A stretch of DNA of 64,000 nucleotides, taken from IMG/VR virus record IMGVR_UViG_3300024257_000005, positions 41,678-105,677 of that record. The stretch is one strand, 5' to 3'. The notes under the pieces are model-generated. The model searched no databases, was not told the DNA's origin, and saw only the letters and a list, made by a program, of their open reading frames with translations. Both the position numbers and the translations under genes were made by a program. The DNA is from a virus. Shown piece by piece: positions 21,256 to 42,498 of this stretch. The stretch's first letter is position 1. Each line of letters starts with the position of its first letter.

Positions 21256-22905
<1,650 letters not shown>

Positions 22906-22927
22906 ATGGAATGATATTTAATAATAA

Positions 22928-22966
22928 TTCCTCTAGTTTGACTACTTAGTGGTCCAGCTAGAGGAA
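22928..22966 (+). terminator. Perfect 9-bp hairpin after groL
   Basis: TTCCTCTAG (22928-22936) pairs exactly with CTAGAGGAA (22958-22966) around a 21-base loop. There is no T-run after it, so it may be an mRNA end-stabilising or processing hairpin rather than a true terminator. Confidence 0.45.
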
Positions 22967-23018
22967 GAATAAATAATTGACAAAGGAAAAAATAAACTAG
23001 GCTTTTTGAAAACTACGT

Positions 23019-23034
23019 TATATTTATATATATG
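23019..23034 (+). promoter_or_regulatory. Putative late promoter box for structured RNA
   Basis: TATATTTATATATATG, same box as before the virion genes. No protein start follows; instead a folded RNA and a terminator do. Confidence 0.5.
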
Positions 23035-23039
23035 AAAAG

Positions 23040-23243
23040 AATTACAAACATATTATCCCGTTATTTTAGTAGACAACTCTGGTTGGGTTGTGGGGCGTGT
23101 TCGTTATGTGATAGTGTCTCAACACCAAAACATAATGCCATTGCTCGCAATGACGAACAACCTAGGGAGCCTTTTGTGTAACGATTAATACAATCATATA
23201 GATTTACATAAAAGGCAAGAACTAAACCTCTTGCCTTTTTTAT
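23040..23243 (+). ncRNA. Candidate structured non-coding RNA with own promoter and terminator
   Basis: About 200 bases between the late-type box and a classic terminator, without a credible ORF. TGTTCGT (23098-23104) pairs with ACGAACA (23153-23159) and encloses two hairpins. One has TTATGT/ACATAA (23104-23109 with 23130-23135), capped by GTGT/ACAC. The other is CATTGC/GCAATG (23139-23144 with 23147-23152). This is a three-way junction. Family unknown to me. Confidence 0.5.
23210..23242 (+). terminator. Rho-independent terminator
   Basis: AAAGGCAAGA and TCTTGCCTTT form a perfect 10-bp stem around an 8-base loop, ending in a T-run. It closes the candidate RNA above and insulates the tRNA array below. 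Confidence 0.85.
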
Positions 23244-23252
23244 TGCTCTTTA

Positions 23253-23289
23253 AAACAGTTGTTTCATTTTGAAAGATTGTGTGTATATT
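23253..23289 (+). promoter_or_regulatory. Central-block-type promoter for the tRNA array
   Basis: AACAGTTGTTTCATTTT as -35 half and TGTATATT (TATATT at 23284-23289) as extended -10. It matches the module before many operons from 28 to 45 kb. It lies just after the terminator and 134 bases before the first tRNA. Confidence 0.6.
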
Positions 23290-23422
23290 GACAAGTAAAT
23301 AGATTTTTGAAATAAAACTAAGAACGAGTGCTCCCAAAAAGATCCTGCATAGTACAGGTTGTGGTGCAGTGAGGTCAGGCGTTAATGACTCCACAAAAGA
23401 GAACGCAGTTTTTAGTTTGTTT

Positions 23423-23495
23423 GCTGGATTAGCTCAAGTGGGTAGAGCCGGGGTTTTGTAAACCTCAGGTTGCAGGTTCGAGGCCTGTGTCCAGC
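23423..23495 (+). tRNA. tRNA-Thr (UGU)
   Basis: Acceptor GCTGGAT pairs with GTCCAGC. The anticodon loop TTTGTAA gives UGU, and the T arm has TTCGAGG. CCA is not encoded. First tRNA of the array. Upstream (23335-23400) lie small hairpins, including GTCA/TGAC. Confidence 0.92.
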
Positions 23496-23809: not shown

Positions 23810-23881
23810 GCTTCCCCGTGCTCAAATACTTTTGATATAAAGAAGTGCTCCCTAGATCATTGGAATTTAGGGAGTTTATAT

Positions 23882-33007: not shown

Positions 33008-33017
33008 TATATTTATA
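33008..33017 (+). promoter_or_regulatory. Putative late promoter box
   Basis: TATATTTATA within an AT-rich tract. It is followed by a structured hairpin and initiator-like tRNA, not by a protein start. Confidence 0.45.
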
Positions 33018-33037
33018 TATGTTATTTGAAACAATTA

Positions 33038-33091
33038 GGTGAGAATGTTCATATATGTGAACTCCTTTCAATGACACAGAATGTTCTCACC
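33038..33091 (+). ncRNA. Structured element with nested hairpins before tRNA-fMet
   Basis: GGTGAGAA (33038-33045) pairs exactly with TTCTCACC (33084-33091), and inside is GTTCA-TATATG-TGAAC (33047-33062). No ORF. It could be a 5' element of the tRNA transcript or a small RNA. Confidence 0.45.
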
Positions 33092-33104
33092 GTTATTATT
33101 AAAT

Positions 33105-33178
33105 TGCGGTGAAGAGCAGTCTGGTTGTTCACTTGGTTCATAACCAAGAGGTCGGTGGTTCGAATCCACCCTCCGCTA
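33105..33178 (+). tRNA. Initiator-like tRNA-Met (CAU)
   Basis: Positions 1 and 72 do not pair (T1 against T72), as in initiators. The D arm GAGCAGTCTGGTTGTTC resembles bacterial tRNA-fMet. Anticodon arm CTTGG-TTCATAA-CCAAG, T loop TTCGAAT. The third CAU tRNA, and the last of the array. Confidence 0.82.
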
Positions 33179-42467: not shown

Positions 42468-42498
42468 CCTTTCATCTAATCGTTTTGAAGTGTATATT
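42468..42498 (+). promoter_or_regulatory. Central-block promoter module
   Basis: CCTTTCATC and AGTGTATATT (TATATT 42493-42498), then GGTAACAACAAAAGGAGTTCGC before ATG 42524. Confidence 0.62.

What the first reader, a model, noticed from the sequence alone, without database searches (positions are those of the whole stretch)
23019..23243. Stand-alone structured RNA with late box and terminator
About 200 bases with a three-way-junction fold, bounded by its own promoter-like box and a perfect terminator, with no ORF. It does not match an RNA family I can recognise.
Basis: partly seen in the sequence, partly recalled or inferred. Interest (0 to 1): 0.62.

Follow-up and report, generated by a model that had tools for sequence, protein, structure and literature searches.

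The report
Phage late transcript before tRNA array
Between a phage's chaperonin gene and its large tRNA array lies a short, late-promoter-driven, terminator-ended stretch that looks like the decayed remains of a small late gene, and its end can fold in two rival ways that could switch the terminator on or off.

Summary
The box (23019) and the terminator (23210-23239) are real. "No ORF" is wrong: a 49-codon frame starts 3 bases after the box. It is probably not a working gene, because its codon usage falls below every real gene segment of this phage. The "three-way-junction" RNA is not supported: without the terminator the fold equals shuffles (z -0.3), and there is no Rfam match.

Nine phage records carry the same box and start-codon spacing, followed by an intact 76-aa late gene with a T4-type capsid-targeting N-terminus; in eight it was seen directly behind groEL, as here. 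The window unit looks like a decayed copy of that cassette.

The clearest structural signal was not in the finding. Bases 23169-23181 pair with 23204-23216 (13 pairs, 0 of 1000 shuffles), in competition with the terminator. This is attenuator architecture. An early-type promoter for the 27-tRNA array starts 15 bases after the terminator.

No diverged homologue was found, so covariation is untestable. Best reading: a short late transcript, relic of a leaderless late gene, ending in a possibly conditional terminator.

The parts
23019..23028 (+). Late promoter box TATATTTATA
   Evidence: Recurs 27-50 nt before structural genes with ribosome sites; best + strand match in the phage to the relatives' cassette box
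23032..23181 (+). 49-codon open frame, no Shine-Dalgarno, ATG 3 nt after TATTTATA; probably not coding today
   Evidence: codon score -0.21, below all real gene pieces
23032..23061 (+). First ten codons MKRITNILSR, resembling the capsid-targeting start MIKLxDILxE of the relatives' gene
   Evidence: codons alone rank 210 of about 104,000 positions (p about 0.002)
23072..23202 (+). Frameshifted, interrupted similarity to the C-terminal part of the relatives' 76-aa gene (23072-23098 and 23165-23202; 66-nt gap between)
   Evidence: 1-3 of 1200 shuffles and 1 of 563 real segments score as high
23098..23159 (+).
   Evidence: marginal stability against shuffles (z -2.0); no other copy in the window
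23169..23181 (+). Antiterminator arm A, GCCTTTTGTGTAA; contains the stop codon of the 49-codon frame
23204..23216 (+). Antiterminator arm B, TTACATAAAAGGC; overlaps the terminator's 5' arm
   Evidence: 13 consecutive standard pairs with arm A, duplex -18.0 kcal/mol versus -8.1 +/- 1.7 in 1000 shuffles, none as good
23210..23239 (+). Intrinsic terminator, 11 pairs, loop 8, T-run
23254..23289 (+). Early-type promoter of the tRNA array, just downstream of the unit
   Evidence: Family of four exact pattern matches in the window, 0 in each of 20 shuffles

Best explanation
A late transcription unit of roughly 205 nt between groEL and the tRNA array. A phage late promoter (23019) starts a transcript at about 23032-23036. 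The unit descends from the leaderless, capsid-targeted late gene that follows groEL in other phages, but the body has lost its reading frame and probably no longer makes protein. Transcription stops at the terminator 23210-23239, which keeps late transcription out of the separately promoted tRNA array. The transcript's 3' end can form either the terminator or a 13-pair antiterminator of nearly equal stability, so termination may be conditional: a ribosome (or another factor) over 23166-23195 would force termination, and naked RNA would allow read-through towards the tRNAs. Shown by computation: the box, the terminator, the competing helix, the non-coding codon statistics, and the shared position and spacing with relatives. 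Inferred: the transcript itself, the start site, the decay from the relatives' gene, and any regulatory use of the switch.
For: Late box family; terminator; same groEL-box-4 nt-ATG layout in eight other loci, with the box-start pattern occurring once in eight of nine records and twice in the ninth; box plus start is the top place in the phage by a wide margin, 19.8 against 7.8; frameshift-tolerant match of the body to the gene's C-terminus; all frames non-coding by codon usage; antiterminator helix 0 of 1000 shuffles and unique among seven predicted terminators; co-transcriptional folding flips to terminator 0.99-1.00 when 23166-23195 is blocked.
Against: All from one sequence; no diverged homologue, so neither the switch nor the decay can be checked by comparison. 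The post-ATG codon resemblance is modest on its own (rank 210), and a plain profile search finds no family match in the body. The tRNA array has its own promoter, so read-through need not matter. The helix was picked after inspection, although its test fixed the target. No transcript data.
Confidence: 0.45

Rival explanations
1. Simple relic: a decayed late gene whose promoter and terminator survive, with no function now; the alternative helix is an accident of sequence.
For: Non-coding codon usage in all frames; broken similarity to the relatives' gene; tRNA array separately promoted; body unstructured.
Against: The competing helix is far beyond chance (0 of 1000) and is found at only one of seven predicted terminators; the promoter box remains the best match in the phage.
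Confidence: 0.25
2. A functional structured or trans-acting small RNA, comparable to T4 RNAC/RNAD from the T4 tRNA region.
For: Own late promoter and terminator; non-coding body; T4 also transcribes two small RNAs of unknown role from its tRNA region (PMC3014915).
Against: Body folds like shuffled sequence (z -0.29); no Rfam match; no homologue outside the identical phage.
Confidence: 0.15
3. A working 49-aa late protein, translated leaderlessly and carried in the capsid.
For: Start-codon spacing and N-terminus resemble the relatives' 76-aa gene; T4 targeting positions 4 and 7 are hydrophobic, isoleucine at both (T4 rules: PMC9026906).
Against: Codon score below all real gene pieces; residue 10, where all relatives have Glu, is Arg; no Shine-Dalgarno although this phage's other late genes have one; no homologue of the protein. 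A PHROG hit at E 0.027 is noise: the family also rings in 9-11 of 14 control genomes.
Confidence: 0.1

Closest known systems
76-aa groEL-adjacent late gene of related phages (alignment A1; unnamed, no significant Pfam or PHROG match)
   Same: Place behind groEL, ATATTTAT box, four bases, ATG, hydrophobic targeting-like first codons
   Different: In the window the frame is broken and interrupted, Glu10 is lost, and a terminator plus antiterminator follow
T4 internal proteins with capsid-targeting sequences (IPI, IPII, IPIII, Alt; PMC9026906)
   Same: Short N-terminus with hydrophobic positions 4 and 7
   Different: Position 10 is Arg, so processing would be lost; no evidence that the frame is translated
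Leader-peptide transcription attenuators (trp type; from my knowledge)
   Same: Terminator and mutually exclusive antiterminator; an open frame whose stop codon lies in the antiterminator arm
   Different: Frame lacks a ribosome site and has no run of regulatory codons; the downstream tRNA array has its own promoter
T4 RNAC and RNAD, small RNAs of the T4 tRNA region, role unknown (PMC3014915)
   Same: Small putative transcript beside a phage tRNA cluster
   Different: No detected sequence similarity; here a late promoter and separate terminator
T4-type late promoters (TATAAATA)
   Same: AT-only box just before late structural genes
   Different: The box reads TATATTTAT[AT] in gene direction, not TATAAATA; the sigma factor was not identified here

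Membership tests
Known Rfam RNA family | Covariance-model score above the gathering threshold | tested here: not met
   No match in 22906-23430 at gathering or at relaxed threshold
Structured non-coding RNA | Fold more stable than shuffled sequence, outside the terminator | tested here: not met
   z -0.29, 109 of 300 shuffles as good
Structured non-coding RNA | Covariation in homologues | not testable with these tools
   Only identical copies found
Leader-peptide attenuator | Intrinsic terminator | tested here: met
   23210-23239, z -5.5
Leader-peptide attenuator | Mutually exclusive antiterminator | tested here: met
   23169-23181: 23204-23216, 0 of 1000 shuffles; unique among seven terminators
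Leader-peptide attenuator | Translated leader frame covering the antiterminator arm | tested here: inconclusive
   Stop codon lies in arm A, but no ribosome site and non-phage codon usage
Leader-peptide attenuator | Regulated genes downstream on the same transcript | tested here: inconclusive
   tRNA array follows at 23423, but has its own promoter at 23254
Groel-adjacent 76-aa late gene family | Box, four bases, ATG directly behind groEL | tested here: met
Groel-adjacent 76-aa late gene family | Intact 76-codon frame with the conserved body | tested here: not met
   Plain profile search finds nothing significant; only frameshifted, interrupted similarity
T4-type capsid-targeting sequence | Hydrophobic positions 4 and 7 (targeting) | tested here: met
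   Ile4, Ile7; rule from PMC9026906
T4-type capsid-targeting sequence | Glu at position 10 (processing) | tested here: not met
   Arg10; Glu10 invariant in seven relatives
T4-type late promoter | Box repeatedly in front of late structural genes | tested here: met
T4-type late promoter | Sequence TATAAATA in gene direction | tested here: not met
   TATATTTAT[AT]
T4-type late promoter | gp55-like sigma factor dependence | not tested
   No gp55 search was made; dependence needs in vitro transcription

The most novel reading that the evidence does not exclude
A leader-type attenuator inside a phage: late transcription from 23019 either stops before, or runs through, a 27-tRNA array depending on whether a ribosome finishes the leader frame, so that the phage's own tRNA supply feeds back on the array's late expression.
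Probability: 0.12. Interest if true: 0.75.

Novelty: new member of a known kind. Interest (0 to 1): 0.33.

Why it matters
If only a relic, it shows how a late-gene cassette decays while its promoter and terminator persist, and it warns that box + hairpin + terminator is not evidence of a structured RNA. If the switch works, it would be an example of attenuation in front of a phage tRNA array. One review states that no riboswitch or trans-acting regulatory RNA had been functionally characterised in T4 (PMC3014915). The comparison also brings out a small leaderless late gene family behind groEL in several other phages, a candidate for capsid-packaged proteins.

Tried and rejected
Rfam at gathering and relaxed thresholds: nothing. 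DNA homologues in phages: only short AT-rich matches. Protein homologues of the 49-aa frame: only the identical phage; Pfam none; PHROG 18623 at E 0.027 rejected as noise because it rings in 9-11 of 14 control genomes; weak tblastn hits to jumbo phages at E >= 0.3 not pursued. Mobile palindromic (REP-like) element for the hairpin: no second copy in the window, no abundance in viral or bacterial genomes, so it was not adopted. The +1 frame as the real gene: no coding signature. Diverged relatives through tail sheath, RNA ligase and DNA polymerase: identical copies only, plus 36% sheath relatives, so no covariation test was possible. Using groEL relatives to align the RNA body: not alignable. 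A covariance model was not built for lack of diverged sequences.

Full report
SETTING. The window is part of a 105,677-base virus record. It is a tailed phage carrying groEL, two RNA ligases, polynucleotide kinase, tail proteins, 27 tRNAs and a tmRNA. The lineage is isolated: tail sheath, RNA ligase and DNA polymerase each find only identical copies, plus 36% sheath relatives. The feature lies between groEL (21271-22905) and the tRNA array (first tRNA-Thr at 23423).

OBSERVATION. The box at 23019 is real and meaningful. TATATTTAT[AT] recurs in front of sheath, tube and other genes, followed by AGGAG-type ribosome sites. The terminator 23210-23239 is real. The statement that there is no ORF is wrong: a 49-codon frame runs from 23032 to 23181. 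The body is not detectably structured. Without the terminator the fold is no better than shuffles (z -0.29), and the TGTTCGT/ACGAACA hairpin alone is marginal (z -2.0). No RNA family matches.

IS IT CODING? Codon statistics trained on this phage's long genes put the 49-codon frame at -0.21 bits per codon, below every one of the real 49-codon gene pieces and typical of off-frame reading. The +1 frame, which is also open (23036-23188), scores as non-coding too. The frame has no Shine-Dalgarno, and its ATG starts 3 nt after TATTTATA. By analogy with T4 late promoters (my knowledge), that puts it at or next to the expected transcription start.

ORIGIN. In L007, L008, L010, L011, L012, L017, L022 and L028, groEL is followed by ATATTTAT, four bases and ATG (L094 has the same cassette; its groEL was not looked at). 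This opens an intact 76-codon gene MIKLxDILxE..., with L4, I7, L8 and E10 invariant in the seven aligned members. These match the positions that direct and process T4 capsid-targeting sequences (positions 4 and 7 for targeting, 8 and 10 for processing; PMC9026906), so the family is a candidate for capsid-packaged proteins. The box-start pattern occurs once in eight of these nine records and twice in the ninth. It is therefore a specific cassette, not a general promoter form. Scored against it, the window's 23018-23061 is the best place in the phage by a wide margin (19.8, next 7.8 of about 104,000). Box and ATG carry most of this score; the codons alone rank 210th. A plain profile search finds no significant family match in the body. 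A frameshift-tolerant alignment finds the C-terminal part of the family in pieces: DNSGWVVGR at 23072-23098, a gap of 66 nt, then 23165-23202. Only 1-3 of 1200 shuffles and 1 of 563 real segments score as high. The parsimonious reading is a broken descendant of the relatives' late gene. Intact copies exist in other phages.

THE 3' SWITCH. Bases 23169-23181 (GCCTTTTGTGTAA) and 23204-23216 (TTACATAAAAGGC) form 13 consecutive standard pairs (one of them G-U). The second arm overlaps the terminator's 5' arm, so the two helices exclude each other: -14.6 against -14.0 kcal/mol. None of 1000 shuffles of the upstream sequence gives so good a partner. Among seven terminators predicted in the phage, only this one has such a partner (z -5.1; next -1.9). 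In growing transcripts the antiterminator forms first and completely; at full length both are about 0.6-0.7. If 23166-23195 is blocked, as by a ribosome at the stop codon 23179-23181, the terminator forms at 0.99-1.00. This is attenuator architecture, computed from one sequence. What it would control is uncertain, because an early-type promoter (AACTGTTTCAT-N13-GTGTATATT family, 0 in each of 20 shuffles) starts at 23254 and can serve the tRNA array on its own.

COMPARISON. It works like a terminator/antiterminator unit in two of its defining features; sensor and target are open. It is not a member of any Rfam family. As a putative transcript beside a tRNA cluster it resembles T4 RNAC and RNAD, whose roles are unknown (PMC3014915), without detected sequence similarity.

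VERDICT. A real, short, late, terminator-ended unit, most likely a decayed leaderless late gene, with a statistically striking but untested conditional terminator. The structured-RNA claim is not supported. Interest is modest; it would rise sharply if the switch were shown to control the tRNA array.

Noticed in passing
window 23254, 28428, 32527, 43131 (variant near 42489): A second promoter family, AACTGTTTCAT-N13-15-GTGTATATT, in front of the tRNA array and of genes with AAAGGAGTTnACATG ribosome sites; probably the early or middle promoter (0 in each of 20 shuffles).
   Followed up: partly
L007:7693-7920, L008:7684, L010:7683, L012:7688, L017:7705, L022:3057, L028:3426, L094:3001: A 76-aa leaderless late gene family directly behind groEL with a T4-type capsid-targeting N-terminus and an internal repeat of about 20 aa; no significant Pfam or PHROG family.
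   Followed up: partly
L083:7256-7300: A terminator directly followed by a late box, the same terminator-then-late-promoter order as behind groEL in the relatives.
   Followed up: no
window 23847-23875: A terminator-like hairpin (11 pairs) ends just 7 bases before tRNA-Asn, in a long non-coding spacer between tRNAs.
   Followed up: no
window 33008-33105: A late box with no ORF before tRNA-Met, so a late promoter may drive a tRNA here.
   Followed up: no
L083:565 and L083:2620: Two more proteins of this phage with capsid-targeting-like starts, MKLKQLITE and MKLRDLLLE.
   Followed up: no
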